Assembly (NCBI GenBank): GCA_029245345.1
Contig: JAQWPM010000012.1
Coordinates: forward strand, 806,001-870,000
Direction of reading: 5' to 3'
From: Longimicrobiales bacterium
GTDB lineage: Bacteria; Gemmatimonadota; Gemmatimonadetes; Longimicrobiales; Gaopeijiaceae
Length of the DNA stretch: 64,000 bases
Position 1 is the first letter of the stretch. The number at the start of each line of letters is the position of its first letter. Made by a program: the position numbers and the translations under genes. The notes below the pieces were generated by a model. The model was not told where the DNA came from. It did not search any database and saw nothing but the letters and a program-made list of their open reading frames with translations. This document shows positions 23,619 through 45,418 of this stretch, in pieces.

Positions 23619-24686
23619 ATGAGCCACGACATCTCTTTCCTAGAGAAACTCCTCGACGCAGCCGGTCCTTCAGGTTTCGAGGTACGCGCTGCTCGAGCTT
23701 GGCGCGCCGAGGCCGAGACGTTTGCGGACGACGTGCAGGTGGACGTCACAGGCAATTCGTTCGCCGTCGTGAATCCCGGCGGTTCGCCGCGTGTCATGCT
23801 CGCCGGTCACATCGATGAGATCGGACTCCAAATCACGCACATCGACGACCACGGCTTCATCTATATTGATGAGATCGGTGGTTGGGATCCCCAAGTGCTG
23901 GTTGGACAGCGAGTGTCGATCATGGGCAGGGGGGGCGACGTCACCGGTGTGATCGGGAAGAAGGCGATCCACTTGATGACCGCCGATGACCGGATCAAAG
24001 CATCAGAGACCAAGAAGCTCTGGGTCGATGTGGGTGCGGAATCCAACGACGAGGTTGCGGCTCTGGGTATCCGAGTCGGCGACCCGATGGTGGTCCTACA
24101 GAGTATGGTACGCCTCGCCGGTGGCCGCATCGCGAGCCGAGCGATCGACGACAGAATCGGCGCGTTCGTCGTGCTTGAAGCGATCCGGATGTTGTCGGAC
24201 GATCCTCCGGCGGCGTGTGCGACAGCTGTAGCGACCGTCCAGGAAGAGATCGGTTATACAGGAGGCGGTGCCCGCTCGAGCGCCTATGCGCTCGAACCAG
24301 ATGTTGCGATCGCTGTGGATGTGACGTTTAGCACCGATGCCCCAGGTGTGGAGAAGAAGGAACTGGGTGACCATAAGTTGGGCGGAGGCCCGGTCCTGAG
24401 CCGTGGGTCGGCTGCGCATAACGAGGTTTTCGAGATGCTTGCCGCTGTGGCAGAAGAGGAGGGGATTCCCTATACCGTTCAGGCTTCTCCCAAGGCGACC
24501 CGCACGGATGCGGACGGGATCTTCCTCACCCGATCCGGCGTGCCGACAGGGCTCGTTTCGGTCCCCAATCGTTATATGCACTCCCCGAACGAGGTCGTGA
24601 GCATCGAGGATCTTTTTCACTCGGCCAAGCTCATTGCGGCGTTCATTCGCAAGCTGACTCCGGAAACGGACTTCACGCCCCGCTAG
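23619..24686 (+). CDS. M42-family aminopeptidase
   Basis: A 355-residue cytosolic metallopeptidase of the M42 (glutamyl/tetrahedral aminopeptidase) family. Metal and catalytic residues are seen in GHIDEIG near residue 66, the bridging aspartate in SRAIDDRIG near residue 173, the double glutamate in QEEIGYTGGG near 209, AVDVTFS near 230 and the final histidine in RYMHSPNEVV near 317. Family members form large hollow dodecamers that shorten peptides. It opens a long plus-strand run of metabolic genes. No signal peptide. Confidence 0.92.
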   Translation: MSHDISFLEKLLDAAGPSGFEVRAARAWRAEAETFADDVQVDVTGNSFAVVNPGGSPRVMLAGHIDEIGLQITHIDDHGFIYIDEIGGWDPQVLVGQRVSIMGRGGDVTGVIGKKAIHLMTADDRIKASETKKLWVDVGAESNDEVAALGIRVGDPMVVLQSMVRLAGGRIASRAIDDRIGAFVVLEAIRMLSDDPPAACATAVATVQEEIGYTGGGARSSAYALEPDVAIAVDVTFSTDAPGVEKKELGDHKLGGGPVLSRGSAAHNEVFEMLAAVAEEEGIPYTVQASPKATRTDADGIFLTRSGVPTGLVSVPNRYMHSPNEVVSIEDLFHSAKLIAAFIRKLTPETDFTPR

Positions 24687-24900: not shown

Positions 24901-25380
24901 ATGGCTTTGGATTCTGGAGAAGTAATACTGGAACTGCAGGAGATGCGGGACGACGGGCACCTTTCGGATGCCCTCCTCCGCAAAGCAGTTCGGACGATTG
25001 CCGTAGCGGACGACGACCGGTTCCACTGGGTCGGCGTCTACCTGCTCAATGAGGCCGATCAGGAGCTCTGGCTCCATAACTACGTCGGGTCTGGCACCGA
25101 GCACTCGAAGATTCCGGTAGGCACCGGTATCTGCGGTCGAGCGGTGGCTGAGCGCACCAACCTGAATGTTGCCGACGTGAGCGCCGACGAGGGTTACCTC
25201 GCTTGCTCACCGGACACGCAGTCAGAACTGGTGATCTTGATCCGCGCCGGAGACGACATCTTCGGTCAGATCGACATTGATTCTGATGATAAAGCTGCGT
25301 TCACCGACGAGGACGAGATGGCGTTGATCGCCATCGCTGACAAGCTCGCCGAGCAGCTCGCGGCGGAGCGTCGCGCGTAG
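24901..25380 (+). CDS. GAF-domain protein resembling free methionine-(R)-sulfoxide reductase
   Basis: A 159-residue single GAF domain. The order of conserved pieces, FHWVGVYL, GTGICGRAVAE, YLACSPDTQSELV and IFGQIDIDSD, follows the fRMsr (MsrC) family, which reduces free Met-R-O. Two cysteines are present, C78 and C102, 24 residues apart, the same spacing as C94 and C118 of the E. coli enzyme, where C118 is catalytic. The third family cysteine (E. coli C84) aligns with H68. It may thus work with a changed recycling route, or it may be a sensory GAF protein. The MBL-fold gene starts 4 bases after its stop. Confidence 0.7.
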   Translation: MALDSGEVILELQEMRDDGHLSDALLRKAVRTIAVADDDRFHWVGVYLLNEADQELWLHNYVGSGTEHSKIPVGTGICGRAVAERTNLNVADVSADEGYLACSPDTQSELVILIRAGDDIFGQIDIDSDDKAAFTDEDEMALIAIADKLAEQLAAERRA

Positions 25381-25384
25381 CGAT

Positions 25385-26185
25385 GTGAGGGACCACCTGC
25401 GCTTCTTCAATGCGGGAAACGTCGGTCCTTTCACGTTAGATGGGACGCGGACCTACCTGGTAGGTACCAAGAGCGTCGCCATGATTGATCCGGGCCCGGA
25501 TGTGGGAGACCATGTCCGGGCCTTGGCTATGGCGGTAGAATCGGTAACGGAACTGAAGATTTTGCTCACTCACGGGCATCCCGATCACGCTGCCGCGGTT
25601 GGCTCTGTGGCCCAGGCGGTCACTCGACACGCGGCCGAGCGAGCGAGCGCCGGTTCGTCGGACCGCTTCTCGATGTCTGTTTGGGGTCCTAAGGGCGTGG
25701 CGGGCGTGGACCATGTCCTGGCCGATGGAGATCTGGTCGTCACCGACGTCGGTAGTCTCATCGCGCTCCACACGCCGGGCCACACCCGGGAGCATCTCTG
25801 CTTCCATTGGGAAAGGCAGGACGCCCTGTTTGTCGGCGACTTACTGCTTGGTGAGGGTGATACCACCTGGGTCGCTGAATACGAGGGATGCGTGGCTGAC
25901 TATCTCGATTCTCTGGCCCGTTTGCGCAGCCTGGGGCTCAAGTTGATCTATCCAGCCCATGGTGCTCCGCTGGAAGACCCAACGAACGCCTTGGACCGTT
26001 TCGAATCCCACCGGCGGGAGCGAATCGCTCAGGTAGCGGCGGCTTTGGCTGATCATCCAGGAGCGGATGCGGCGCGACTTCTCGAGGTCGTCTACGGAGA
26101 CACGCTTCCGAAGGGAATGCGGGCCCCGGCCCTCCAGAGCTTAGGTGCGTTGCTGGAGTATGTCCGAAGTGTCGTTGAACACTGA
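25385..26185 (+). CDS. Metallo-beta-lactamase-fold hydrolase (LACTB2/glyoxalase-II-like)
   Basis: A 266-residue hydrolase. The metal site motif THGHPDHAAAVG is near residue 62, with the next ligand in LHTPGHTREH near 128, the aspartate in FVGDLLLGEG near 150 and the histidine in YPAHGAPLED near 195. The C-terminal helical part resembles the winged-helix end of LACTB2-type proteins, which act on RNA or thioesters. The GTG start at 25385 is the first codon after the preceding stop. The specific substrate is unknown. Confidence 0.82.
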   Translation: MRDHLRFFNAGNVGPFTLDGTRTYLVGTKSVAMIDPGPDVGDHVRALAMAVESVTELKILLTHGHPDHAAAVGSVAQAVTRHAAERASAGSSDRFSMSVWGPKGVAGVDHVLADGDLVVTDVGSLIALHTPGHTREHLCFHWERQDALFVGDLLLGEGDTTWVAEYEGCVADYLDSLARLRSLGLKLIYPAHGAPLEDPTNALDRFESHRRERIAQVAAALADHPGADAARLLEVVYGDTLPKGMRAPALQSLGALLEYVRSVVEH

Positions 26186-26230: not shown

Positions 26231-27640
26231 ATGAGTACGCCCCTTCCCTCCGCGATCGTGAACAAACTCGGTCACACTGTTGGCTCCGAGAACGTGATCA
26301 CGGACCCCGACCGCCTGGTGGTCTACGAATCTGACGGCTTGTCGGCGTACAGGGTGCCACCCAGGGCCGTCGTGCTGCCCAAAACGACTCGCGAGGTCGC
26401 CGAGGTGGTCGCGGTGCTTCACGGCGAGGGGATCGACGTGATCCCACGCGGGTCCGGCACTGGGCTATCTGGGGGAGCGCTCGCGACTTCTGACGGTGTC
26501 GTTTTAGGCACGGCACGTATGAACACGATTCTGAATATCGACTCTGAGAATCGACTCGCTCGGGTCCAGCCGGGAGTCATCAATGCTCGACTCACCGAGG
26601 CGACGAAGCCGCATGGTCTCTACTACGCTCCAGACCCTTCCTCGCAGAGCACATGCACCTTGGGCGGGAACGTTGCCGAGAACTCCGGTGGCCCGCACTG
26701 CCTCAAGTATGGTGTGACTGCACGGTACGTGACGGGTCTGACCGTGGTGCTCGCGGGAGGCAAGGTCGTAGAGCTAGGTGGTGCAGGGTATGACCCCTAC
26801 GGCTCGCTGGATCTCGTCGGATTGTTCGTCGGTTCCGAAGGCTGCTTTGGCATTGCGACAGAGATCGAGGTGCGCCTCCTCCCGATCGCTGAAGGGGTGA
26901 GGACACTTCTCGGAATATTCAACACCATGGAGGACGCCGGACGTGCGGTGACGTCGATCATGGGCTCCGGCCTTCTCCCTGCTGCGGTGGAGATCGTGGA
27001 CAGTGAAACGATCAAGGCGGTCGAGGCCAGTGTATTTGCTGCGGGCTATCCCGTGGATGCCGGAGCAGCTTTGGTGATCGAATTCGATGGGACCGAGGCT
27101 GGACTCGATGCCGATGCCGACCGGGCGGAAGCATGCTGTCTCGCCGAAGGTGCTCGAGAAGTGCAACGGGCGACCGACGAAGAACACCGCATGGCTCTGT
27201 GGAAGGGCCGGAAGAAGGCATTCGGCGCGATGGGCCGGATCGCGCCGGATCTTTTGGTTCAAGACGCGACGGTTCCGCGAACCAAGTTGCCTGAGGTGCT
27301 GTCGCGGATCGCGGACATCGGGACCCGATACAAACTGAACATCGCTAATGTGTTCCACGCAGGGGACGGCAATCTCCACCCGAACATCCTCTTCGACCGC
27401 CATGATGCGGACGAACTCGAGCGTGTCGAGCGTGCTTCAAAGGAGATCATGGTCCTGTGCGTTGAGGTCGGCGGCACGATCACAGGTGAGCATGGTGTGG
27501 GGGTGGACAAGCGTGAGTACATGCCGCTCGTACATGAGCCCATAGAGCTTGCCGCCATGGCCGCGGCCAAGGCGGTGTTTGATCCCGACTCGCTCTTTAA
27601 CCCTGGGAAAGTGCTTCCGGATGTTGAGGAAACCAGTTGA
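26231..27640 (+). CDS. glcD: Glycolate oxidase subunit GlcD (FAD-linked)
   Basis: A 469-residue FAD-binding oxidase of the VAO/PCMH type. The FAD motif PRGSGTGLSGGA is near residue 80, with further contacts in GGNVAENSGGPHCLKYG near 145, and the C-terminal catalytic part shows NVFHAGDGNLHPN and GEHGVG. With GlcE and GlcF it oxidises glycolate (or another 2-hydroxyacid such as D-lactate) and feeds electrons to the quinone pool. I start at the ATG at 26231 rather than a TTG two codons earlier. The stop overlaps the GlcE start (TTGA). Confidence 0.92.
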   Translation: MSTPLPSAIVNKLGHTVGSENVITDPDRLVVYESDGLSAYRVPPRAVVLPKTTREVAEVVAVLHGEGIDVIPRGSGTGLSGGALATSDGVVLGTARMNTILNIDSENRLARVQPGVINARLTEATKPHGLYYAPDPSSQSTCTLGGNVAENSGGPHCLKYGVTARYVTGLTVVLAGGKVVELGGAGYDPYGSLDLVGLFVGSEGCFGIATEIEVRLLPIAEGVRTLLGIFNTMEDAGRAVTSIMGSGLLPAAVEIVDSETIKAVEASVFAAGYPVDAGAALVIEFDGTEAGLDADADRAEACCLAEGAREVQRATDEEHRMALWKGRKKAFGAMGRIAPDLLVQDATVPRTKLPEVLSRIADIGTRYKLNIANVFHAGDGNLHPNILFDRHDADELERVERASKEIMVLCVEVGGTITGEHGVGVDKREYMPLVHEPIELAAMAAAKAVFDPDSLFNPGKVLPDVEETS

Positions 27641-28776
27641 GCGAGGACGTGAAGACAGCTATCGAGGACATCGTTCCGGCGGAGGCGTTGGATGATACCG
27701 GAGGCAGGGGCCCGTTGGCTGCGGCTGCGGAGGCCGTTGTTCTGCCGGGTAGTGTCGAGCAGGTGGTCGAGGTCGTGCGATGGGCAGGAGCGTCGGGTAG
27801 GCGCATCGTTCCGATCGGTACCGGACAGCGTGTGGGGGGGGAGCATGCTGCCGGTCCCTACGTACTACTGTCGACCCATCGACTTTCGTCCATCGATATC
27901 TATGAGCCTGCCGACCTGACGATCACCTTGGGTGCAGGACTGACGATCTCTGGGTTGCACGAAGCGACGCGGCCCAACCAACAGTGGCTCCCGTTCGATC
28001 CGCCCACGTTTTCGTCACGTACGGTGGGCGGGTTGGTGGCTGCCGGGCTGACCGGGCCGCTTTGGGCCGGTTATGGCGACATAAAGAACCACGTGCTCGG
28101 AGCCACGGTCGTGTGCGGGGATGGCCGTTGTTTGCGGTTGGGTGGCCGAGTCGTAAAGAATGTTGCTGGATTCGACCTGCTGCGCCCCGTTGTCGGCAGC
28201 CGCGGCAGTCTAGCTGTGATTACCTCCGTCACGTTACGGCTGTTTCCCGTGCCGGTTGTGGATCGGGTCTTGGTGCTGGAAGGTGAACGTCTGGAGGATC
28301 TCGTTCCGGCCGCACGACGCGTGGCGACCGCGTCCGTCCTGCCCGTCTCGATCGTCATAACGAATCACGATGGCGCGCCTAAGTTGCTCGTGAGGCTTCA
28401 TGGTGCATCGCCGACCGTTGATGCCGATCAAAAGACGTTTGAGGCGGCCGTAGGTTCTCAGTTCCGATCCCTCGAGGGTGAGAAGGCACTCGAGATCGCT
28501 CGAGCGACACGGGACGCCGGCGTCGGTCTGCCCCACACTGTCACAATGTTCGGTAAAGGGACGGAATTGGCCGAGTTGATTCGCCAGGCGCAGGAGATCC
28601 CAGACGCCACGATTTCCGCCGACGCGTACCGATGTGCGGTGACGGTTGGCACCACTGCTCCGATTGATGGGTGCTTGAACACGGGTCGGCCACTGGATCC
28701 CGAGGTTGTGGTGTTGAACGCAGGGGCCAAGGGAGTGTTCGACCCCGGCGGCGTGATGTGGAGTCCACAACCATGA
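27637..28776 (+). CDS. glcE: Glycolate oxidase subunit GlcE (FAD-binding)
   Basis: A 379-residue shortened FAD-binding subunit. It keeps the FAD-binding half, with PIGTGQRVGG near residue 49 and RTVGGLVAAGLTGP near 128, but lacks most of the catalytic C-terminal domain, as is normal for GlcE. The start is TTG at 27637 overlapping the GlcD stop, and the GlcF gene follows 11 bases after the stop. Order D-E-F is the standard operon. Confidence 0.9.
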   Translation: MSEDVKTAIEDIVPAEALDDTGGRGPLAAAAEAVVLPGSVEQVVEVVRWAGASGRRIVPIGTGQRVGGEHAAGPYVLLSTHRLSSIDIYEPADLTITLGAGLTISGLHEATRPNQQWLPFDPPTFSSRTVGGLVAAGLTGPLWAGYGDIKNHVLGATVVCGDGRCLRLGGRVVKNVAGFDLLRPVVGSRGSLAVITSVTLRLFPVPVVDRVLVLEGERLEDLVPAARRVATASVLPVSIVITNHDGAPKLLVRLHGASPTVDADQKTFEAAVGSQFRSLEGEKALEIARATRDAGVGLPHTVTMFGKGTELAELIRQAQEIPDATISADAYRCAVTVGTTAPIDGCLNTGRPLDPEVVVLNAGAKGVFDPGGVMWSPQP

Positions 28777-28787
28777 AGACGTCGTAG

Positions 28788-30098
28788 ATGACCTCACCGA
28801 CAACGACCCTCTCGGATGCCCTCGCCGCCCAACAGGAGCGGCTGCTGCCCTGTGTGCACTGCGGTTTCTGCCTACCGGTTTGCCCGACCTACACACGGCT
28901 AGGTGATGAAAACGATTCACCTCGGGGCCGTTTGCACCTCATGCGGCACGTGGTGGAAGGACGCATGAATCCGGCCTCGGATGCGTTTCGTACCCATATC
29001 GATCGATGCCTTGGATGCCGCGCTTGTGAGCCGGTATGCCCTTCGGGGGTCGAGTACGGCACGCTCCTAGAACTGGCCCGTGAGACCGTCGCGGAGCACC
29101 ACCCGCCGAGTCGCCTCACGCGGATGCTTCTGACCGTCTTCGCGAGTCGGACCCTCCGTGCCGCGGTCCTGTTTCCTGGGCGCGTGATACGCTCGCTGGG
29201 GTTGGCGTCGCTCATGGGCCGTGTTGTTCCGGCGGTAGGGCCGTTGCGTGGCGCGAAGTTGGGAATGGCCATGCTCGCGTCAACGAGAAGGTGGGTGCCA
29301 CCCAAGGTGAGCGCTGAGCAAAGAGGGGTAGCGCCCAACGCGGTACCGACTCCCCGTGGTCGTGTCGGAGTCCTAGAGGGATGTGTTCAACAAGGACTCT
29401 TCTCTCATGTGAACGATGCGACGGTTCGTGTGCTGGAGGCGAACGGGTACTTGGTTGTCCCAGTGAAAAGGCAGGGCTGTTGCGGCGCCCTGCACGTCCA
29501 CAGCGGCGACCTGGATGGCGCACGTACGTTGGCTGCCGCCAACATCAAGGCGTTCGAGTTGGTGGACGTGGACTGGATCGTGGTCAACGCCGCGGGGTGC
29601 GGTGCTGCGATGCAGGATTACGGAACGCTGTTCGAGGCAGATGCGGAGTGGTCTGAACGGGCAGGCACCTTCGCGGCCAGGGTCAAGGATGCCACGGAAC
29701 TGCTCGCTGACGCGGGCCCGAGGCAGGGGGCCGAGGTGGTGTGCTCCATCGCGTACGACCACCCCTGTCATCTGCTTCATGCGCAACGGGTCGAGACCGC
29801 ACCGCTCCAGGTGCTGGGGGCTGTCCCCGGGGCTGAGGTCCGCGTTGTAGACCGAGCAGATGAGTGCTGTGGAGGTGCGGGCATCTACGGCATTACCCAT
29901 CCCGAACTCGGCGGCCAGATTGGCCGCGACAAGGTCGCTGCCGTGAGGGCATGTGGAGCCGACGCACTCGCGACGCCGAACCCGGGGTGTATGATGCAGA
30001 TCGGGGCGGGTCTGTTCTTGGAGGGCGCCCCAGAGGGTGTGCTTCATCCCGTCGAGTTGCTGGACACGAGTTATCTGAGGGCGGGTTTTTACGATTGA
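28788..30098 (+). CDS. glcF: Glycolate oxidase iron-sulfur subunit GlcF
   Basis: A 436-residue iron-sulfur protein. Two 4Fe-4S motifs are complete: C22-x2-C25-x2-C28-x3-C32 (CVHCGFCLPVCP) and C74-x2-C77-x2-C80-x3-C84 (CLGCRACEPVCP). Two CCG domains follow, marked by QGCCGALHVHSGD and DECCGGAGIYG, which hold a further cofactor in related heterodisulfide-reductase-like subunits. It carries electrons from GlcD/GlcE to the membrane quinones. The M20 hydrolase gene starts 10 bases after its stop. Confidence 0.92.
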   Translation: MTSPTTTLSDALAAQQERLLPCVHCGFCLPVCPTYTRLGDENDSPRGRLHLMRHVVEGRMNPASDAFRTHIDRCLGCRACEPVCPSGVEYGTLLELARETVAEHHPPSRLTRMLLTVFASRTLRAAVLFPGRVIRSLGLASLMGRVVPAVGPLRGAKLGMAMLASTRRWVPPKVSAEQRGVAPNAVPTPRGRVGVLEGCVQQGLFSHVNDATVRVLEANGYLVVPVKRQGCCGALHVHSGDLDGARTLAAANIKAFELVDVDWIVVNAAGCGAAMQDYGTLFEADAEWSERAGTFAARVKDATELLADAGPRQGAEVVCSIAYDHPCHLLHAQRVETAPLQVLGAVPGAEVRVVDRADECCGGAGIYGITHPELGGQIGRDKVAAVRACGADALATPNPGCMMQIGAGLFLEGAPEGVLHPVELLDTSYLRAGFYD

Positions 30099-30108
30099 GA
30101 GGAAGAGC

Positions 30109-31278
30109 TTGAGCGACGCATCGGAACGAGCGCAGGAGGTACTGGCGTATTTGCGTGAGCGTCAGGACGAGATGGCCCGGATGCTTGTCGCATTGGCCAA
30201 CGTAGAGTCACCGACGGACGTGCCGTCGTCCCAAGCGGCCGTTCAACGCCAACTCACCGAGTCCTTTGAAGACCTCGGTTTCTCGGTTCGGCACCGCCGT
30301 GGCGTGGAGACCGGTGGATACCTCTTCGCCAAACCGTCCGGTCGGGTGAAAGGGCGACGCGCCCAGCTCTTAATGGGGCACTGCGACACGGTGTGGCCCA
30401 TCGGTACGACCGAGTCTATGCCGGTCCGAATCGAAGACGGGGTTCTCTATGGTCCCGGCACCTTCGATATGAAAGCTGGCATCACTCAGGGAATTTTCGC
30501 GCTCCGTGCACTCCGTGATCTAGGGCACGAGCTCCCTCTCACGCCTGTGTGGTTCATCAACTCGGATGAAGAGACGGGTAGCCCTGAGTCACAGCGTTAC
30601 GTACGGCTCGTCGCAAAGCACGTCGACCGCACATTTGTGCTCGAGCCGTCCTTGGGTCCACAGGGGTCACTGAAGACAGCAAGGAAAGGTGTGGCGCGTT
30701 ATCACCTCACGATTCACGGAAAAGCCGCTCATTCGGGCCTCGACCCCAAAGGTGGAGCGTCAGCGATACAGGAGCTATCTCATGTCGTGCAGGCGCTACA
30801 CGCGCTCACCGATCATGAACGGGGACTGACCGTGAACGTCGGGGTCGTTGAGGGCGGCACACGTCCCAACGTGATCGCGGCACGCGCGACGGCGGTTGTT
30901 GATGTACGAATCATGACGATGGCTGACGGCGAGTGGATCGACGGCAAGATCCATGGCCTGCAGGCCCAGACCCAGGGGACCTCCATTGACGTGGCCGGTG
31001 GAATCGAGGTGCCACCCTTGGAGCGTACGCCTCGCAACCGCGAGCTCTGGTTCGCAGCTCAAGCCTCCGCGGATCGCCTGGGCCTGTCGATTGATGAGCA
31101 GATCTCGGGCGGAGGGTCCGACGGGAACACGACCAGCCAATACACCGCTACCATCGACGGCCTTGGCTCGGTGGGTGACGGTGCTCACGCGACCCATGAA
31201 CATGTAGTCATCGATCGTATGCCTGAGAGGGCGGCGCTTCTAGCGGAACTCCTCATGACTCCGTGCGGCGCAGGCTAA
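30109..31278 (+). CDS. M20-family hydrolase (carboxypeptidase G2-like), probable N-succinyl/acyl-L-amino-acid hydrolase
   Basis: A 389-residue cytosolic M20 enzyme with all metal ligands: H91-x-D93 (GHCDTVWP), D120 (GPGTFDMKAG), E154/E155 (DEETGS), a glutamate in LEPSLG near 179 and a histidine in the last quarter. Dimerisation-domain H is in GKAAHSG. Start is TTG at 30109 with GAGAGGAAGAG upstream. Directly followed by a GNAT acyltransferase (TAATG overlap) and an enolase-superfamily racemase. In Geobacillus the same three types of enzyme remove D-amino acids by N-succinylation, racemisation and desuccinylation; this gene would do the last step. Assignment of substrate is inference from context. 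Confidence 0.85.
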   Translation: MSDASERAQEVLAYLRERQDEMARMLVALANVESPTDVPSSQAAVQRQLTESFEDLGFSVRHRRGVETGGYLFAKPSGRVKGRRAQLLMGHCDTVWPIGTTESMPVRIEDGVLYGPGTFDMKAGITQGIFALRALRDLGHELPLTPVWFINSDEETGSPESQRYVRLVAKHVDRTFVLEPSLGPQGSLKTARKGVARYHLTIHGKAAHSGLDPKGGASAIQELSHVVQALHALTDHERGLTVNVGVVEGGTRPNVIAARATAVVDVRIMTMADGEWIDGKIHGLQAQTQGTSIDVAGGIEVPPLERTPRNRELWFAAQASADRLGLSIDEQISGGGSDGNTTSQYTATIDGLGSVGDGAHATHEHVVIDRMPERAALLAELLMTPCGAG

Positions 31279-32117
31279 TGGTTGAGACGTGGCGTGGGTA
31301 CACGATCCGCTCCTTCGAGACGATCGAAGAGTTCCGTGAGTGTGTGGAGCTTCAAGAGGAGACCTGGGGCCAAGGTTTCTCCGAGCGCGTGCCTCCGGCG
31401 ATCCTGAAGGTGTCTCAGATTCTCGGCGGAGTATCTGCAGGCGCATATACTGCGGATGGTGACTTAGTGGGGTTCGTATTCGGGATGACGGGCCTACGCG
31501 GTGGCGAGCTCGTGCACTGGTCTGACATGCTCGCGGTCCGGGAGAAAGCGAGGGATTCTGGACTGGGGACCAAGCTCAAGGCGTATCAGCGTGACCGTGT
31601 GATGGAGCTTGGAGTCAAGCGTATGCATTGGACTTTCGATCCTCTGCAGTCTCGGAATGCGTATCTCAATTTTGCCAAGCTGGGTATCGTGGTACGCGAG
31701 TACGCCCGCGACATGTACGGGCAGACCGACTCGCCTCTCCATCGCGGCATAGGGACGGATCGTATGATTCCGCTCTGGCTCCTGGAGTCCGAACGCGTCG
31801 CGAGGCGGCTCGAGGGCACCGAGGTGTTCACCATCTCAGACGCAGACTCGATCCCTTATGCGCTCCGGGGGAGTGGGAGTAGTGAGGACCCTGGCCCACT
31901 CGAGCCGGTTCTCGATATCGACTCGGATCGCCTGCTGGTGTCGATCCCGTCGGATGTGGCGGGCATGTTGGACCGAAGCGTTGAACTCGCACTCGAGTGG
32001 CGTTTGGCTACCCGAACTGTGTTCACGCACTATCTTGCCGCCGGTTACGAGGCTCGAGAGTTGCTACGTCGCGACCATACCTCTGACTACCTGCTCGCCA
32101 AGATCCAGGCTGAGTAG
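31278..32117 (+). CDS. GNAT-superfamily acyltransferase (COG3375-like), probable D-amino-acid N-succinyltransferase
   Basis: A 279-residue protein. The first 150 residues form a GNAT fold, with SDMLAVREKARDSGLGTKLK supplying the acyl-CoA-binding strand-turn-helix (about residues 82-101) and RMHWTFDPLQSRNAYLNFAKLG following. The rest is an extra domain found in the COG3375 subgroup, which is often encoded beside MenC-like enzymes. Start ATG overlaps the M20 stop as TAATG. In the known pathway this enzyme would add succinyl from succinyl-CoA to a D-amino acid so that the racemase can act. The activity is inferred from context. Confidence 0.8.
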   Translation: MVETWRGYTIRSFETIEEFRECVELQEETWGQGFSERVPPAILKVSQILGGVSAGAYTADGDLVGFVFGMTGLRGGELVHWSDMLAVREKARDSGLGTKLKAYQRDRVMELGVKRMHWTFDPLQSRNAYLNFAKLGIVVREYARDMYGQTDSPLHRGIGTDRMIPLWLLESERVARRLEGTEVFTISDADSIPYALRGSGSSEDPGPLEPVLDIDSDRLLVSIPSDVAGMLDRSVELALEWRLATRTVFTHYLAAGYEARELLRRDHTSDYLLAKIQAE

Positions 32118-32139
32118 TGACCACCAACCCAACGAATCT

Positions 32140-33243
32140 ATGAAGATCGAACGCGCGGTACTCCGTGAGCTTCCGCTCCGCCTCAAAGAGTTCTTCGAGA
32201 TCAGCAGCGGAGGGAAGCAGGATCGTCGAATCCTGCTTTTGACCCTCTATTCAGATGGGGAAGAGGGCTGGAGTGAGTGTGTGGCCTCCGAAGACCCTTC
32301 GTACGCCTACGAAACGACCGATGGCGCCTGGCACATCCTGACCGACTTCATCCTGCCGAACATCGTGGGACGTGAAGCTTCCGGGCCAGAGGATATCCTG
32401 AGCCCTGTGTCTTGGATTCGCGGACACGGCATGTCGAAAGCCGCGGTCGAAATGGCGGGATGGGACCTCGCCGCTCGTATGGACGGGGTCTCGCTCTCGA
32501 AGAAGCTCGGCGGGGAGCGTGATGTTGTCCCAGTGGGTGTGAGCATCGGACTGAAGCCGACCGACGAAGAGCTTCACGAGGCAGTGGCAGGCTATCTGGA
32601 AGACGGCTACGCGAGAGTGAAGCTCAAGATCAAGCCGGGACGGGATGTCGAGATGCTCGCGGGTCTTCGTGAGCGTTTTCCGGACACGCTCTTCATGGCG
32701 GACGCCAATTCTGCATACAGGCTCGAAGACTCCGACCGGCTGCGTGAAATGGATGCGCTCAATCTCACCATGATCGAGCAGCCGCTCCGCTACGATGACT
32801 TCTTGGAGCACGCACGTCTGCAGGAACGGATCGAGACGCCAGTGTGCCTGGACGAATCCATCAAGGGGGAGGGCGACCTAGCGCTAGCACTCGAGCTGGG
32901 AAGCTGCCGGATCGTGAACATCAAGCCGGGCCGGGTGGGCGGATTCGGTGTCAGTTCTAGGATTCACGACACCATGCGTGCGGCTGGACTGCCAGTTTGG
33001 TGCGGAGGAATGCTGGAATCTGGTGTGGGGCGGGCTCACAACCTGGCCCTCGCATCGTTGCCTGGTTTCACCTTGCCCGGGGATATCTCGGCGAGCCAAC
33101 GCTACTGGTCGCAGGACATCGTCACGCCGGAATTCGAGGTCGAGGACGGGGTCATGAAGGTCCCAACAGGCCCCGGACTGGGCGTGGAGCTGGACCTCGA
33201 CCGGATTCACGGTCTCACCGTCCGCGAGGCAGAATTCGGCTAA
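32140..33243 (+). CDS. Enolase-superfamily N-succinylamino-acid racemase / o-succinylbenzoate synthase-like
   Basis: A 367-residue member of the MenC/NSAR branch of the enolase superfamily. The catalytic lysines K161-x-K163 and K262, and the magnesium ligands D188 (ADAN), E213 (IEQP) and D238 (DES), are all present, as is GGMLESGVGRAHN near residue 287. I start at the ATG at 32140, where the family N-terminus MKIERA begins; an open frame continues upstream over the GNAT gene in another frame. The partner genes argue for racemisation of N-succinylamino acids, but OSBS activity in menaquinone synthesis cannot be excluded from sequence. Confidence 0.88.
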   Translation: MKIERAVLRELPLRLKEFFEISSGGKQDRRILLLTLYSDGEEGWSECVASEDPSYAYETTDGAWHILTDFILPNIVGREASGPEDILSPVSWIRGHGMSKAAVEMAGWDLAARMDGVSLSKKLGGERDVVPVGVSIGLKPTDEELHEAVAGYLEDGYARVKLKIKPGRDVEMLAGLRERFPDTLFMADANSAYRLEDSDRLREMDALNLTMIEQPLRYDDFLEHARLQERIETPVCLDESIKGEGDLALALELGSCRIVNIKPGRVGGFGVSSRIHDTMRAAGLPVWCGGMLESGVGRAHNLALASLPGFTLPGDISASQRYWSQDIVTPEFEVEDGVMKVPTGPGLGVELDLDRIHGLTVREAEFG

Positions 33244-38682: not shown

Positions 38683-39039
38683 GTGGGTCACAGCAAGCCG
38701 GAAACCGCTATCGAGATCTTCGATCAACTGGAAATTCGCAGCGGACGAGTTGTTGCCGTTGAGCCGTTTCCCGAGGCCCGGAAACCAGCCTTTAAGCTGA
38801 CGCTGGATTTCGGGGAGCCGGTTGGCGTGCTACGCTCGTCCGCTCAACTCACCCATCGATATCATGTGGAGGACCTCCTGGGCACCCAGATACTGGCTGT
38901 TGTGAACTTCCCGCCACGGCTCGTAGCCGGATTCAAAAGCGAGTGCCTCGTGCTTGGGGTGATCAACCCAAATGACCCGGGTGACATCGTTCTCGTTCGC
39001 CCCGACTATGCGGGCACCCCAGGTTGGGAGCTCGGTTGA
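38683..39039 (+). CDS. csaA: CsaA-like tRNA-binding-domain protein
   Basis: A 118-residue stand-alone tRNA-binding OB-fold (EMAP/CsaA type). Typical pieces are IRSGRVVAVEPFPEARKPAFKL near residue 18, SSAQLTHRY near residue 52 and FPPRLVAGFKSECLVLG near residue 76. CsaA was proposed to be an export-related chaperone in Bacillus; the fold binds tRNA. Start is GTG at 38683. The stop overlaps the TTG start of the TRAP permease gene. Confidence 0.88.
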   Translation: MGHSKPETAIEIFDQLEIRSGRVVAVEPFPEARKPAFKLTLDFGEPVGVLRSSAQLTHRYHVEDLLGTQILAVVNFPPRLVAGFKSECLVLGVINPNDPGDIVLVRPDYAGTPGWELG

Positions 39040-40931
39040 GCAAAAGCATGCGGGTGCGCGCGTGGGTGATTGCGGCCGTTTCTGCGGCGGCGGCGCTGTT
39101 CCACCTCTATGCGGCGGGATTCTCGCCATTCACCGCACTGATTCAGCGGCCTGTTCACCTGGCCCTGATGGCAGCGTTGGGTTTTCTGGGCGTTGGGGTA
39201 CAGCGTAAACGGCGAGCCTCTGCGGCCGCCGAGGTCGTAGAGGCGGACGGGGACGCGACGAACCCGGTGGACGAAGAGGAATCGGTTTCATCCGACGAGC
39301 TGAGTTGGCTCAACTGGGTGCTGGCGGGAATCACGGTTCTGGTATGTGGCTACCTGGCGTCTCAAAACCAGCAGCTGGTCAGCCGATCCGCTAATCCCAC
39401 GCAACTCGATCTGATTGCCGGCGGAGTTCTGATTCTTCTCGTCCTCGAGCTGGCTCGCCGGGCGACGGGCTGGGGATTGGTCATCGTGTGTCTGCTCGCG
39501 CTGGGTTATGCGTTCGCGGGTCCATATCTGCCCGGCTTCTTGGCTCATCGCGGATACGGGGTCGTGCGCCTGGTTGAGCAGCTCTTCTTGTCCACCGAAG
39601 GCATCTGGGGAGTGCCGCTCGGGGTGTCGGCGGACTTCGTTTACTTGTTCGTGCTCTTTGGGGCAGTGCTTGATGTCGCCGGTGGTGGTGCGCTGTTGAT
39701 CGCCTTGGCGAACCGAGTCGCGGGGCGCACGCGCGGCGGCCCGGCAAAGACGGCCGCCGTCGCGAGCGCCTTGATGGGCTCGTTGTCTGGCAGCGCGGTC
39801 GCGAATGTCGTCACTACGGGGTCGTTCACGATCCCGCTCATGAAACGTGCGGGATTTAGGCCCTTCTTTGCGGGTGCCATCGAGGCTGCGGCGAGCACGG
39901 GTGGGCAGCTCATGCCGCCGGTCATGGGCGCGGGCGCGTTCATTCTCGCGACGTGGACCAACATCCCCTATTTGGAGGTAGCCGCTGCAGCGGTAATCCC
40001 CGCGATTCTGTATTATGCTGCCCTGATTGCCGCCATCCATTTTCGCGCCGGCCGCATGGGCATTAAGCCTGCCGGGACTGGTGATGTAGAAAAAGTCTCA
40101 GATCGGCTGCATCTGCTGCTGCCACTCGCCGCGATCGTGATCCTGTTGGGTATGGGCCGCTCGCCCATGCGCGCGGCATTCTGGGGTGTGACCTCTGCGT
40201 TCGTCATGGCGTATTTGCGTCCAGCGACTCGGCCTTCGTTGCCTGAAATCCGCACGGTGATGGAGCGGGCAGGACGTGGGGCGGTTCAGGTCGCCGCGGC
40301 GTGCGCCGCCGCCGGCATCGTTGTCGGTGTGGCGTCGCTCACGGGCATCGGACTCCGCATGTCGGAGCTCATTATCCAAGTGTCAGGGGGCAATCTCCTG
40401 AGTGCGCTCATGCTCACCGCACTGGGTTCGATCGTCTTGGGCATGGGTCTCCCGACTACGGCCGCGTATGTGGTGCTGGCCGCCCTCGGGGCCCCTGCGC
40501 TCGTTCAATTGGGTGTGCCTCTGCTCGCGGCCCACCTGTTCATTTTCTACTTCGGATGCATCTCGAACGTGACGCCCCCGGTGTCGCTCGCGGCATTTGC
40601 TGCGGCCGGGATCTCCGGCGCTCCACCACTAAAAACTGCGATGACTGCTGCGGTGTTGGCTGGAGCCGGGTTCGTGGTGCCCTTCATGTTCGTGTACGGC
40701 CCCCCGCTTCTGCTCGTGGGGACGATTCCTGAGATCACGCTGGCCTTTGTGAGTGCCATTGTTGGCGTGACGGCGCTGGCTGCAGCGGGGATGGGTTTCG
40801 CCCGGCGACCGATCGTGTGGTGGGAGCGCGTGATTCTCTTCGTCGCGGCGCTCGCACTGGTGCTCCCGGGCCTGGCCACGGATGGGGCTGGGCTAGTCGG
40901 CGTTGTTGTGGTCTTTTCTAGGGCTGAATGA
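39036..40931 (+). CDS. TRAP transporter fused permease (4TM/12TM, TAXI type)
   Basis: A protein of about 630 residues with some 16-18 membrane segments. The first 130 residues hold the small (DctQ-like) part, and the rest the large DctM-type part, with motifs such as GSLSGSAVANVVTTGSFTIP near residue 252 and GMGLPTTAAYVVLAALGAPA near residue 470. The fused form partners with TAXI binding proteins, one of which follows. I choose the TTG at 39036, which overlaps the csaA stop as TTGA; an ATG at 39048 is an alternative. It should import an organic acid or amino acid using a sodium or proton gradient. Confidence 0.92.
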   Translation: MSKSMRVRAWVIAAVSAAAALFHLYAAGFSPFTALIQRPVHLALMAALGFLGVGVQRKRRASAAAEVVEADGDATNPVDEEESVSSDELSWLNWVLAGITVLVCGYLASQNQQLVSRSANPTQLDLIAGGVLILLVLELARRATGWGLVIVCLLALGYAFAGPYLPGFLAHRGYGVVRLVEQLFLSTEGIWGVPLGVSADFVYLFVLFGAVLDVAGGGALLIALANRVAGRTRGGPAKTAAVASALMGSLSGSAVANVVTTGSFTIPLMKRAGFRPFFAGAIEAAASTGGQLMPPVMGAGAFILATWTNIPYLEVAAAAVIPAILYYAALIAAIHFRAGRMGIKPAGTGDVEKVSDRLHLLLPLAAIVILLGMGRSPMRAAFWGVTSAFVMAYLRPATRPSLPEIRTVMERAGRGAVQVAAACAAAGIVVGVASLTGIGLRMSELIIQVSGGNLLSALMLTALGSIVLGMGLPTTAAYVVLAALGAPALVQLGVPLLAAHLFIFYFGCISNVTPPVSLAAFAAAGISGAPPLKTAMTAAVLAGAGFVVPFMFVYGPPLLLVGTIPEITLAFVSAIVGVTALAAAGMGFARRPIVWWERVILFVAALALVLPGLATDGAGLVGVVVVFSRAE

Positions 40932-40989
40932 CGAACGCCGCCTTCGCAGCGGTCGATCGATTTGAACACAGTCCTCGGAGATGTCCCCG

Positions 40990-41925
40990 GTGAAAAAAAC
41001 TTCTCTCCTCGCAGTCCTGCTGGCTGCTAGTGTCCTGACCGCGTGCAGTACTGAAGGCGGCCCTGAGTTCCTTTCACTGGGCACGGCGGGAACCGGCGGC
41101 ATCTACTATCCGCTGGGTGGCGCGATCGCGAGCCGACTCTCGATTGCCGACTCCGCTCGTCAGTTCACCGCGGAAGTGAGCGGCGGATCCGTAGAGAACA
41201 TCAATCGCTTGGCTGCGCGTCAGATGGATCTGGCGTTCGTCCTCGCGGTGACAGCGTTCCAGGGACAGCAGGGCGAAGGTGACTTCACGCAAGCCGTCTC
41301 GGATCTCCGGATCTTGGCCCCTCTGTACCCCAACCTGACGCACGTCTTGGTCTCGGGTAAAAGTGCCGCTGAGACCATCGCGGACTTCGGGGGGATGCGG
41401 GTGTCCGTTGGTGCGGCGGGCTCCGGTACGGAGCAGATGTCGAGGCACCTGCTCGAAGCACATGGACTGACCTACGACGACATCAATCCTCAATACCTGT
41501 CCTTTGCCGAGTCCTCGACGGCGCTTCGGGATGGGGCAATCGATGCGGCGATTATTTCTGTGGGGTATCCCGCAGCGGCGGTCCTAGAAGCCACGACGAC
41601 CGGGAATGTGAAGCTCCTGCCAGTGACGGCCGAGGGCGTCGAAGCTCTCCGTTCCGTGCATCCCTATTACACCACAGGTGAAATACCCGCTGGTACCTAT
41701 CCAGGGGTCGAGGAAGCCGTGCCTACCGTGGCGGTCATCAATTGGATCGTCGCGTTGGAGTCACTTGACGACGACGTCGTGACGACACTACTGAGCATGC
41801 TGGCTGATGACCGGGCATCCCTCGAGCAGGTCCACGCCATGGCGAAGCAGATCGATCTTGATCGCCTCGTGGATTCGCCGATCCCGCTGCACCCCGCTGC
41901 GGTGCGCTGGATGGAGAACCGCTAG
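40990..41925 (+). CDS. TAXI-family TRAP transporter solute-binding lipoprotein
   Basis: A 311-residue binding protein. The signal peptide ends in a lipobox (SVLTAC). The TAXI hallmark SLGTAGTGGIYYPLGGAIA follows close behind, then AGSGTEQMSRHLLEAHGL near residue 140. GGAG at 40977-40980 is correctly spaced for the GTG at 40990, not for the ATG at 40981, so I use the GTG. Known TAXI proteins bind glutamate, glutamine or 2-oxoglutarate. It works with the fused permease directly upstream. Confidence 0.92.
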   Translation: MKKTSLLAVLLAASVLTACSTEGGPEFLSLGTAGTGGIYYPLGGAIASRLSIADSARQFTAEVSGGSVENINRLAARQMDLAFVLAVTAFQGQQGEGDFTQAVSDLRILAPLYPNLTHVLVSGKSAAETIADFGGMRVSVGAAGSGTEQMSRHLLEAHGLTYDDINPQYLSFAESSTALRDGAIDAAIISVGYPAAAVLEATTTGNVKLLPVTAEGVEALRSVHPYYTTGEIPAGTYPGVEEAVPTVAVINWIVALESLDDDVVTTLLSMLADDRASLEQVHAMAKQIDLDRLVDSPIPLHPAAVRWMENR

Positions 41926-42110
41926 GACTCACGGCGTCGATCCAAAGTTCGGCCCCATGCCCTCCGATGACGGCCATCTGCCGGTACTACTTCTGTCCAG
42001 CTTGATGTTGATTGCGGTGCCGCGCAAAGTGCGGATGCGGTTGAGCGGGAAGGGGCGTACGATGTCGTTGGCTTCAATCCTACCTCGTGTCACTCCCTCC
42101 AGGGGCTTCC

Positions 42111-43694
42111 ATGTCGATCACGACTCCCACAGTCCTGCGCGTTCTCCGACTCGTATCAGTCGTCGTGGTGTTCGCAGCGATTACCAGCACCGCCGCAGCG
42201 GCTCAGTCCTTCGACGTGGTCGAAGCCACGATTGCGGAGGCCCATGCCGCCATGCGGTCCGGGGATCTCACATGCCGTGCGTTGGTCCAGGCCTATATCG
42301 AGCGGATCGAGGCGTACGACCAGGCAGGACCGATGCTCAACACGGTCCAGACGCTCAACCCTCGGGTGCTTGAGGAGGCAGACGCCAAGGATGCTGCTCT
42401 GGAGCGGGACGGCCTCACCGGCCCACTCCATTGTGTGCCGGTCCTCCTGAAGGACCAGGTCGAGACTGGTGATATGCCGACCACTTATGGGTCCGCCCTA
42501 TTTAAGAATTTCCAATCGGATCGGGACGCGACGATCGTCGTCCGTATGAAGGAGGCAGGGGCGATCATTCTCGCGAAGACCAATATGGGCGAGTTCGCTT
42601 CACGTTACGTAGGGTCTGCGTACGGCATCATTCGGAACCCTTATGCCACTGACCGGAATCCCTCGGGATCGTCGGGTGGGAGTGCCGTGGGCACGGCGGC
42701 GAGCTTAGGCATGGTCTCGATTGGCGAGGATACAGGCGGGTCGATTCGGGGACCGGCCTCGGTTACGAACCTCGTCGGGCTGCGGCCGACGCTCGAGCTG
42801 GTCAGCACGTATGGCATGATGCCCGCGAACCCCACGCACGACACCATGGGGCCAATGACGCGGACCGTGACGGATGCTGCGCTCCTCCTCGATGCCATCG
42901 CGGGGTACGATCCGAATGACCCCTTAACGGCCAAGTCGTTCGGAGAAGTGCCCGACTCGTACACGGAGTTGCTAGACACTCGGGCCCTAGAAGGCGCCCG
43001 TGTCGGGATCATCCGGGACCCGATGGACACTAGAACGGATCCTTCGTCTGAAGACTACACGAAGGTTCGTGCCGTGATGGATCGCGCGATCGCACAGCTG
43101 AGTGCCTTGGGTGCTGAAGTCATTGATCCGCTTGAGATCCCAGGACTCGAAGTTCTTGGGACGATCAACAACAGCTATGAGACGGAGCAGGCTACCAACG
43201 AGTATCTCGCCCAACTCAGCGATCCACCGTACACGACGTTCAGGGACATCCTACTGTCGGGGATCGTGAATCCGTGGCGCTCCCTTGCCATGTGGGGCGT
43301 GGCCGGCAAGACAACGGACGACCCTGGGTACCTAGAGGTGATGCTCAAGCGGGATGCGGTTCGCACCGCGGTGCTCAAAGCGATGGCGGACCACAATCTC
43401 GACGCCCTGGTGCATGCGACATTCGACCATCAGCCCACACTCATCGCTCTGGACGTCGAGACGAATGCGACTCCGAAAGACGGGTATGGATGGGGGGACA
43501 ACCGTCAGTTGAGTCCTGCGACTGGCTTTCCTGCGCTTACCGTGCCGGCTGGCTTCACAACGGACGACCTGCCGGTGGGTATCGAGTTCTTAGGACGGCC
43601 ATTCACGGAAGGGATGCTCTTGAGCCTCGGGTATGCGTTCGAGCAGGCCACGGGGCATAGGCGGGCGCCGGCCAGTACGCCAAGTATCAGGTAG
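42111..43694 (+). CDS. Secreted amidase (amidase-signature family)
   Basis: A 527-residue amidase with a Sec signal peptide ending near AAAAQS. The catalytic set is intact: lysine in LLKDQ near residue 121, the GSSGGS loop near residue 192, and the nucleophilic serine in EDTGGSIRGP near residue 216. I start at the ATG at 42111, which gives a normal signal peptide; the 185-base gap before it holds no gene. It is followed after 5 bases by the gamma-glutamyltransferase gene. Its N-terminal half is only distantly like the Tat-exported amidase at 21.8-23.5 kb. Confidence 0.9.
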   Translation: MSITTPTVLRVLRLVSVVVVFAAITSTAAAAQSFDVVEATIAEAHAAMRSGDLTCRALVQAYIERIEAYDQAGPMLNTVQTLNPRVLEEADAKDAALERDGLTGPLHCVPVLLKDQVETGDMPTTYGSALFKNFQSDRDATIVVRMKEAGAIILAKTNMGEFASRYVGSAYGIIRNPYATDRNPSGSSGGSAVGTAASLGMVSIGEDTGGSIRGPASVTNLVGLRPTLELVSTYGMMPANPTHDTMGPMTRTVTDAALLLDAIAGYDPNDPLTAKSFGEVPDSYTELLDTRALEGARVGIIRDPMDTRTDPSSEDYTKVRAVMDRAIAQLSALGAEVIDPLEIPGLEVLGTINNSYETEQATNEYLAQLSDPPYTTFRDILLSGIVNPWRSLAMWGVAGKTTDDPGYLEVMLKRDAVRTAVLKAMADHNLDALVHATFDHQPTLIALDVETNATPKDGYGWGDNRQLSPATGFPALTVPAGFTTDDLPVGIEFLGRPFTEGMLLSLGYAFEQATGHRRAPASTPSIR

Positions 43695-43699
43695 CGAAG

Positions 43700-45418
43700 A
43701 TGGGATACCGAGACTTCCTCCGCATCACTTCCGTCGCGCTCGTCATGCTCTCTGTGGCTTGCGCCACAGACGATGCAGCCCATGAGGTCATACCGGACCC
43801 AGGCACATACAGAAATGGCCTCGTGGTCAGCGCCCACGAACTCGCCTCCCAGGTCGGCATAGACGTCATGAGAAACGGTGGCAACGCCGTTGACGCCGCC
43901 GTGGCGACGTTCTATGCCCTCGCAGTGGTGCTGCCCTCTGCTGGTAACATCGGAGGCGGGGGCTTCATGGTGATTCGCACACCCGATGGTGAGAGCTTCG
44001 CGATCGACTTTCGTGAACAGGCCCCAGGCCGGGCGTATAGGGACATGTTCCTGGATGAAAACGGTGACTTTGCGCAGGACCTCACCCGGGTGGGAGCCCT
44101 CGCCGCCGGGGTGCCCGGCTCCGTAGCCGGAACGCTTCATGCTCTCGAACTGCACGGGACGATGAATCGTGAGGAAGTGATCCGCCCGGCCATTGGACTG
44201 GCCCGGGATGGCTGGGTGCTCAACCAGGACATGGGCGGCGAGCGCTTCGCCCAATTCCCGTCGTCGCAGGCAGTGTTCAACAAGCTCGACGGCACGCGCT
44301 ACCTCACGGGAGAGGTGTGGGCCCAGCCGGACCTCGCCGAGACCTTAGGAGCCATCGCCGAAGAAGGCCGGAGCGGCTTCTACGGTGGTTGGGTCGCCGA
44401 CCGCATCGTCGAGACCATGGAGGCTCACGGCGGACTTATCTCCCATGAGGACCTCAGGGGGTACGAGGTCAAAGAACGCGTTCCCTTGCAGGGCAGTTAT
44501 CGCGGGTACGACATCGTCTCCATGCCGCCCGTGAGTTCCGGAGGCATCACCCTGATCGGTGCACTCAACATCCTGGAACGCTACGACCTTGCTGGGATGG
44601 AGCAGGGCCAGGGAGCAACGCTGCATCTCATGGCCGAAGCCATGCGCCGGAGTTTCGCGGACCGGAATTGGTACATCGCTGATCCCGATTTCGTGGACGT
44701 GCCTCGTGACGTTTTGGTCAGCAAGGAATACGGCGACCACCGGGCGAGTGACATCGATCCTGAGCGTGCCACCCCCAGCGATCAGATCACACATGGCGAC
44801 GTGGACGTGGCAGTCTCGGAGAGCAATGAGACCACCCACTTCTCCGTGGTCGATGGGGACGGCATGGCGGTTTCCGTGACCACGACAATCAACTCGGCCT
44901 ACGGAAGCCTCTTGGTGGTGGACGGAGCCGGATTCCTCCTCAACAACCAGATGGGGGACTTCAGCGCCCGGGCGGGCGTGCCGAACCACTCCGGCCATGT
45001 GTACAGTGATGCCAACAGCATCGAGCCGGGCAAACGCATGATCAGTTCACAAACGCCCACGATCGTCGCCAAGGACGGCAAGAACTTCATGGTGGTGGGC
45101 GGCGACGGCTCGGGCCGGATCATTACCGCGGTGCTCCAGACCATTGTAAACGTCATCGACCACGGCATGGGCATCGAAGACGCTGTCATCGCCCCCCGAA
45201 TCCATCATCAGTGGTTACCCGACCACATTGAGTATGAGGAGGAGTCGGGCGGCGGCGTTCCACCGGCGGCGTTGGTCCAGTTGGAAGCGATGGGGCACAC
45301 ACTCATTGCTCGGCGACATGGGAACATCCACGCGTTGATGATCGACCCGGAGACCGGGTGGTTCACGGGAATTGCGGAGCCGAGGAGGAACCCGTCGGGG
45401 AAGGCTGTGGGATACTAG
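43700..45418 (+). CDS. ggt: Gamma-glutamyltransferase (lipoprotein)
   Basis: A 572-residue N-terminal-nucleophile hydrolase that cleaves or transfers gamma-glutamyl groups, for example from glutathione. The signal peptide ends in a lipobox at C21 (SVACAT). The self-cleavage and catalytic threonine lies in NETTHFSVVDGDG, and the substrate-binding GGDGSGRIITAV is near residue 470. The large subunit starts with VSAHELAS and NGGNAVDAAVAT, typical of the family. With the upstream amidase and the TAXI transporter it could release and recover glutamate from outside the cell; that link is inference. Confidence 0.93.
   Translation: MGYRDFLRITSVALVMLSVACATDDAAHEVIPDPGTYRNGLVVSAHELASQVGIDVMRNGGNAVDAAVATFYALAVVLPSAGNIGGGGFMVIRTPDGESFAIDFREQAPGRAYRDMFLDENGDFAQDLTRVGALAAGVPGSVAGTLHALELHGTMNREEVIRPAIGLARDGWVLNQDMGGERFAQFPSSQAVFNKLDGTRYLTGEVWAQPDLAETLGAIAEEGRSGFYGGWVADRIVETMEAHGGLISHEDLRGYEVKERVPLQGSYRGYDIVSMPPVSSGGITLIGALNILERYDLAGMEQGQGATLHLMAEAMRRSFADRNWYIADPDFVDVPRDVLVSKEYGDHRASDIDPERATPSDQITHGDVDVAVSESNETTHFSVVDGDGMAVSVTTTINSAYGSLLVVDGAGFLLNNQMGDFSARAGVPNHSGHVYSDANSIEPGKRMISSQTPTIVAKDGKNFMVVGGDGSGRIITAVLQTIVNVIDHGMGIEDAVIAPRIHHQWLPDHIEYEEESGGGVPPAALVQLEAMGHTLIARRHGNIHALMIDPETGWFTGIAEPRRNPSGKAVGY

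What the first reader, a model, noticed from the sequence alone, without database searches (positions are those of the whole stretch)
30109..33243. Complete three-gene module for D- to L-amino acid conversion through N-succinyl intermediates
An M20 hydrolase with all metal ligands, a COG3375-type GNAT acyltransferase and an enolase-superfamily MenC/NSAR enzyme with full catalytic residues are consecutive, with overlaps or 22-base gaps. In Geobacillus kaustophilus, enzymes of the same three classes succinylate D-amino acids, racemise the product and desuccinylate the L-form. The sequence shows the families and order; the reaction here is inference. It sits directly after glcDEF, which suggests a shared transcript.
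Basis: partly seen in the sequence, partly recalled or inferred. Interest (0 to 1): 0.65.

Follow-up and report, generated by a model that had tools for sequence, protein, structure and literature searches.

The report
D-amino-acid module doubling for menaquinone synthesis
Three neighbouring genes in a Gemmatimonadota genome match a known pathway that turns D-amino acids into L-amino acids, and one of them is also the only gene in that genome able to fill a missing step in making vitamin K2, so a single enzyme probably serves both pathways.

Summary
In detail: an M20 hydrolase, a GNAT acyltransferase and a TIGR01928 MenC/N-succinylamino-acid racemase (NSAR) with all catalytic residues, tightly spaced behind glcDEF. 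For the D-to-L reading: the GNAT is followed directly by MenC in 65 of 76 evaluable loci from several phyla, and the pair persists in many genomes that use the futalosine route and need no o-succinylbenzoate synthase (OSBS). Against a racemase-only reading: this genome has menF, menD, menB, menA and menE together, no menC there and no mqnA, and the window gene is its only MenC-family gene. Best explanation: a bifunctional NSAR/OSBS, a kind already known (Geobacillus). The GNAT-NSAR pair is the cross-phylum core; the M20 is linked mainly in this lineage, where relatives also insert a P-loop protein and a flavoprotein of unknown role. Acyl group and amino acid are not shown by any data here. Ordinary in kind, but a good natural experiment on enzyme promiscuity.

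The parts
30109..31278 (+). M20 metallo-hydrolase (carboxypeptidase-G2-like), proposed N-acyl-L-amino-acid hydrolase
   Evidence: Pfam M20 and M20_dimer; CPG2 is the best PDB match; zinc ligands and general base present; next to MenC or GNAT in most of family f1
31278..32117 (+). GNAT acyltransferase, proposed D-amino-acid N-acyl(succinyl)transferase
   Evidence: borderline Pfam GNAT (27-29 of 30 relatives match a GNAT model); GNAT fold of the AF2 model; paired with MenC in 65 of 76 loci
32140..33243 (+). [quoted passage not shown]
   Evidence: TIGR01928 330 bits; PDB 2zc8/1r0m/1sja; catalytic residues; only MenC-family gene in the genome
26225..27640 (+). glcD-like FAD subunit, same directon
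   Evidence: Pfam/NCBIfam; syntenic in relatives
27637..28776 (+). glcE-like FAD subunit
28788..30098 (+). glcF-like iron-sulphur subunit, ends 10 bases before the M20 gene
23619..24686 (+). M42 aminopeptidase, first gene of the conserved block
24901..25380 (+). GAF-domain protein of the conserved block
25385..26185 (+). metallo-beta-lactamase-fold protein of the conserved block

Best explanation
The GNAT and the MenC-like enzyme form an N-acyl-amino-acid pathway. The GNAT acylates (probably succinylates) a D-amino acid, the enolase-superfamily enzyme racemises the N-acyl-D form through its two lysines (K163 and K262) on a metal ion, and the M20 enzyme removes the acyl group from the L form, pulling the conversion to L. 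The same enolase-superfamily enzyme is also the genome's only o-succinylbenzoate synthase and completes a men pathway whose own gene cluster has no menC. Shown here: the genes, families, residues, conserved linkage, the men cluster without menC, the absence of mqnA and of a second MenC. Inferred: both reactions, the succinyl group, the amino-acid range and the co-transcription.
For: TIGR01928 and closest solved structures are NSAR/OSBS enzymes, with all catalytic residues and R265. GNAT directly followed by MenC in 65 of 76 evaluable named loci from several phyla. The GNAT gene (mostly with its MenC) occurs without menD and with mqnA in 21 of 34 such genomes and in most f2 relatives; among men-negative relatives MenC and GNAT co-occur (8/2/1/12, Fisher p = 0.0007). 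OSBS need: menF, menD, menB, menA, menE together at L037 5554-12479 without menC, no mqnA, a single MenC-family gene; the men clusters fetched from five other f1 genomes also show no MenC. All 32 f1 genomes with menD (two by partial hits) have a TIGR01928 gene, also the four of them without GNAT. G070 by contrast has a separate menC-like gene on the menD contig besides the GNAT-paired one.
Against: No activity data. The genome is a 30-contig assembly at 98% completeness, so a second menC could be missing. M20 is linked to MenC in some genomes where no GNAT is found (G028, G030, G034), which the scheme does not explain. Acyl groups other than succinyl are equally possible. The published Geobacillus work could not be read here.
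Confidence: 0.68

Rival explanations
1. Racemase only: the gene serves the D-to-L pathway and menaquinone is made with another, unseen OSBS.
For: In most genomes with the GNAT-MenC pair there is no men pathway at all, so the gene's common role is not OSBS. G070 has a separate menC-like gene on its menD contig.
Against: No second MenC-family gene in this genome at E up to 1, and every men-positive f1 relative keeps a MenC of this family.
Confidence: 0.12
2. OSBS only: the gene is simply menC displaced from the men cluster, and the GNAT and M20 neighbours act on something else.
For: The men cluster lacks menC; genomes with men but without GNAT keep the gene (G028, G030, G034).
Against: Strong GNAT-MenC linkage across phyla, including genomes without men genes. 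The second lysine and R265 are kept where GNAT is present; R265 is lost in 3 of 9 GNAT-less copies and 0 of 38 others (p = 0.005), and K262 only in G037.
Confidence: 0.12
3. A variant of the best explanation: the pathway is specific for one amino acid such as D-glutamate, with an acyl group other than succinyl, like the DgcN-DgcA route for D-glutamate.
For: The M20 is carboxypeptidase-G2-like (CPG2 releases L-glutamate, from memory). Several relatives have a P-loop protein with weak DUF1611 similarity between M20 and GNAT (9 of 9 members match, best E 2.9e-5), and DgcN is a DUF1611 protein (from memory).
Against: That gene is absent from the window, and its genome has no DUF1611 hit; the MenC scores only 93 bits on the DgcA model against a cut-off of 400.
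Confidence: 0.2

Closest known systems
Geobacillus kaustophilus NSAR / GNAT succinyltransferase / M20 desuccinylase D-to-L pathway (Sakai et al. 2006, from memory; not held in the library)
   Same: Same three enzyme classes, clustered; NSAR/OSBS subfamily enzyme with both lysines and the R266 equivalent
   Different: Gene neighbours (glcDEF block); M20 subgroup is CPG2-like; homology of the GNAT to the Geobacillus protein could not be tested; different phylum
Bifunctional NSAR/OSBS enzymes (Amycolatopsis and others; reviewed in PMC4215206)
   Same: TIGR01928-type enzyme, both reactions expected
   Different: Here menC is absent from the men cluster and sits in the proposed D-amino-acid block
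N-acylamino-acid racemases of Thermus and Deinococcus (PDB 2zc8, 1r0m)
   Same: Closest solved structures by sequence, all catalytic residues shared
   Different: Control genomes of those groups carry futalosine mqnA, so they should need no OSBS
DgcN-DgcA D-glutamate pathway (mentioned in PMC10845958)
   Same: N-acylation of a D-amino acid followed by an enolase-superfamily racemase (from memory)
   Different: No DUF1611/DgcN homologue in this genome; racemase is not of the DgcA family

Membership tests
NSAR/OSBS subfamily (TIGR01928) of the enolase superfamily | Family model above curated cut-off | tested here: met
   330.1 bits against 200.65
NSAR/OSBS subfamily (TIGR01928) of the enolase superfamily | KxK motif, three metal ligands and opposite lysine | tested here: met
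   K161, K163, D188, E213, D238, K262
NSAR/OSBS subfamily (TIGR01928) of the enolase superfamily | Second-shell Arg linked to NSAR specificity (R266; title of Truong et al. 2021 as cited in PMC10975908) | tested here: met
   R265; correspondence to R266 is from the KPxR motif
NSAR/OSBS subfamily (TIGR01928) of the enolase superfamily | NSAR and OSBS catalytic activity | not testable with these tools
   needs enzyme assay
Geobacillus-type D-to-L amino acid module | Clustered GNAT, NSAR and M20 genes | tested here: met
   1-base overlap and 22-base gap; conserved
Geobacillus-type D-to-L amino acid module | GNAT homologous to the Geobacillus succinyltransferase (COG3375) | not tested
   no COG library and no Geobacillus sequence among the hits; only a GNAT fold was shown
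Geobacillus-type D-to-L amino acid module | Succinyl-CoA use, D-specific acylation, L-specific desuccinylation | not testable with these tools
   needs assay
Classical menaquinone (men) pathway | menF, menD, menB, menA, menE in the genome | tested here: met
   L037 5554-12479; menE's best model scores 267.7 bits, below its cut-off of 330
Classical menaquinone (men) pathway | A menC within the men gene cluster | tested here: not met
   none in the cluster; the only MenC is in the window
DgcN-DgcA D-glutamate pathway | DUF1611/DgcN protein and DgcA-family racemase | tested here: not met
   no DUF1611 hit in the genome; DgcA model 92.9 bits against 400

The most novel reading that the evidence does not exclude
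In this lineage a racemase from a D-amino-acid salvage module was recruited as the OSBS for an acquired or reorganised men gene cluster that has no menC, so that the switch from the futalosine pathway depended on a promiscuous activity already present. The same order contains futalosine users with the module, men users with the module, and men users that lack the GNAT and in some cases the racemase-linked residues.
Probability: 0.4. Interest if true: 0.6.

Novelty: new member of a known kind. Interest (0 to 1): 0.4.

Why it matters
It extends the N-acyl D-to-L pathway to a widespread, mostly uncultured phylum and shows that the GNAT-NSAR pair is the cross-phylum core. It also gives a testable natural experiment on promiscuity: close relatives differ in whether OSBS is needed (men or futalosine) and in whether an acyltransferase is present, while keeping the same enzyme. 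For annotation, it warns that TIGR01928 'o-succinylbenzoate synthase' labels are probably wrong or incomplete in futalosine genomes.

Tried and rejected
A dedicated menC elsewhere in the genome: none found with PF13378, TIGR01928, TIGR01927 or my own alignment; the second PF13378 hit is glycolytic enolase. Futalosine pathway in this genome: no mqnA. A solved homologue of the GNAT by sequence: nothing significant, and fold search gives only generic GNATs. P-loop protein of relatives as DgcN: only weak DUF1611 similarity, no PDB match by sequence, and weak fold matches to dethiobiotin synthetase and SRP-type P-loop proteins; left open. Promoter and terminator scans were uninformative. The key papers (Sakai 2006, Truong 2021, the DgcN-DgcA paper) are not held in the library.

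Full report
What is there. The three genes are real and at the stated coordinates: M20 30109-31278, GNAT to 32117, MenC/NSAR 32140-33243. One correction: the GNAT most likely starts at ATG 31278, overlapping the M20 stop in TAATG, rather than at GTG 31263. The M20 has the metal ligands H91, D120, E155, E179 and H360 by alignment to carboxypeptidase G2. The MenC scores 330 bits on TIGR01928 (cut-off 200.65), its nearest solved relatives are the N-acylamino-acid racemases of Thermus, Deinococcus and Amycolatopsis, and K161, K163, D188, E213, D238, K262 and R265 are all present. The GNAT is just under the Pfam cut-off by sequence, but its AlphaFold model (pLDDT 94.6) carries a GNAT fold.

Surroundings. 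The genes close a same-strand run M42, GAF, metallo-beta-lactamase fold, glcD, glcE, glcF, M20, GNAT, MenC, facing a convergent GspE/PilB-type ATPase gene. That block is conserved across the window's family, called f1 here. Named matches place the lineage in Gemmatimonadota. Relatives may add a flavin reductase before the M20, a P-loop protein between M20 and GNAT, and an FAD oxidoreductase between GNAT and MenC. In the second family of the order (f2) the glcDEF-M20-GNAT stretch often lacks MenC, and a separate GNAT2-MenC2 pair occurs.

Linkage beyond the lineage. In 80 named loci found with the GNAT alignment, MenC follows the GNAT on the same strand in 65 of the 76 that could be judged (median gap 59 bases), in Gemmatimonadota, Acidobacteria, KSB1, Ignavibacteriales, Hydrogenedentes and others. 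The M20 lies upstream in only 23 of 80, essentially within Gemmatimonadota. The conserved core is therefore the acyltransferase-racemase pair.

Menaquinone context. The genome has menF, menD, menB, menA and menE in one cluster (with a peptidyl-prolyl isomerase-like gene, by my reading) and no menC there (L037 5554-12479). It has no mqnA. Searches with PF13378, TIGR01928, TIGR01927 and my MenC alignment find only the window gene, apart from enolase itself. So the window gene is the only candidate OSBS. Of the 35 f1 genomes sampled, 32 have menD (two by partial hits) and all 35 have a TIGR01928 gene over the cut-off. Published work agrees that Gemmatimonadota split between men and futalosine users (PMC9426454).

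Why a racemase role is still likely. Of 34 genomes behind the named loci, 21 have mqnA and no menD over the cut-off: they have the GNAT gene, mostly with its MenC, but no evident use for OSBS. Among men-negative relatives in the order, MenC and GNAT go together (8 both, 2 MenC only, 1 GNAT only, 12 neither; Fisher p = 0.0007). R265, the equivalent of the Arg tied to NSAR specificity, is lost in 3 of 9 GNAT-less copies and in none of 38 others (p = 0.005; rows are related, so the p-values are a guide only). In G037, which is men-positive, futalosine-negative and GNAT-less, the second lysine is replaced by Arg, as expected of an enzyme that needs no second base.

History. In a tree of 56 sequences, the f1 block enzymes form one supported clade (99/98) whose members with known status are all men-positive. 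Its sister clade mixes futalosine and men users from several phyla; a further clade comes from futalosine or pathway-less genomes (the long G037 branch is unreliable). This fits recruitment of a racemase to the OSBS step, but the direction was not tested with a species tree or a MenD tree.

What remains open. No assay exists. The succinyl group and the amino acids are taken from the Geobacillus precedent, which I know from memory and could not read here. The M20 is linked to MenC in some genomes without a GNAT, and the P-loop protein and flavoprotein of relatives have no role in the simple three-enzyme scheme.

Verdict. A real, conserved module of a known kind; the reading needs the second role added.

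Noticed in passing
L081:6265-7287 (also L138, L154, L158, L161, L109): A conserved P-loop protein of unknown function sits between M20 and GNAT in many relatives; weak DUF1611 similarity, weak dethiobiotin-synthetase-like fold match.
   Followed up: partly
L081:8126-9352 (also L098:8446-9687, L150, L158): A conserved FAD/NAD-binding oxidoreductase of unknown function sits between GNAT and MenC in many relatives.
   Followed up: partly
L118:7916-9043: In G037, a men-positive relative without GNAT, the MenC-like protein has Arg in place of the second catalytic Lys and lacks the R266 equivalent, in the same neighbourhood (M42-GAF-MBL).
   Followed up: partly
L079:7811-8911: G004 has a second, stand-alone MenC closer to the window protein (77%) than its block copy (63%): possible split of the two functions, or a binning artefact.
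   Followed up: no
window 39024-45418: A DctM-type transporter gene with a TAXI-like receptor gene (40981-41925, by my reading only) and a gamma-glutamyltranspeptidase lie downstream, and M14, M28, M1 and S9 peptidases elsewhere in the window: a peptide-scavenging setting.
   Followed up: no
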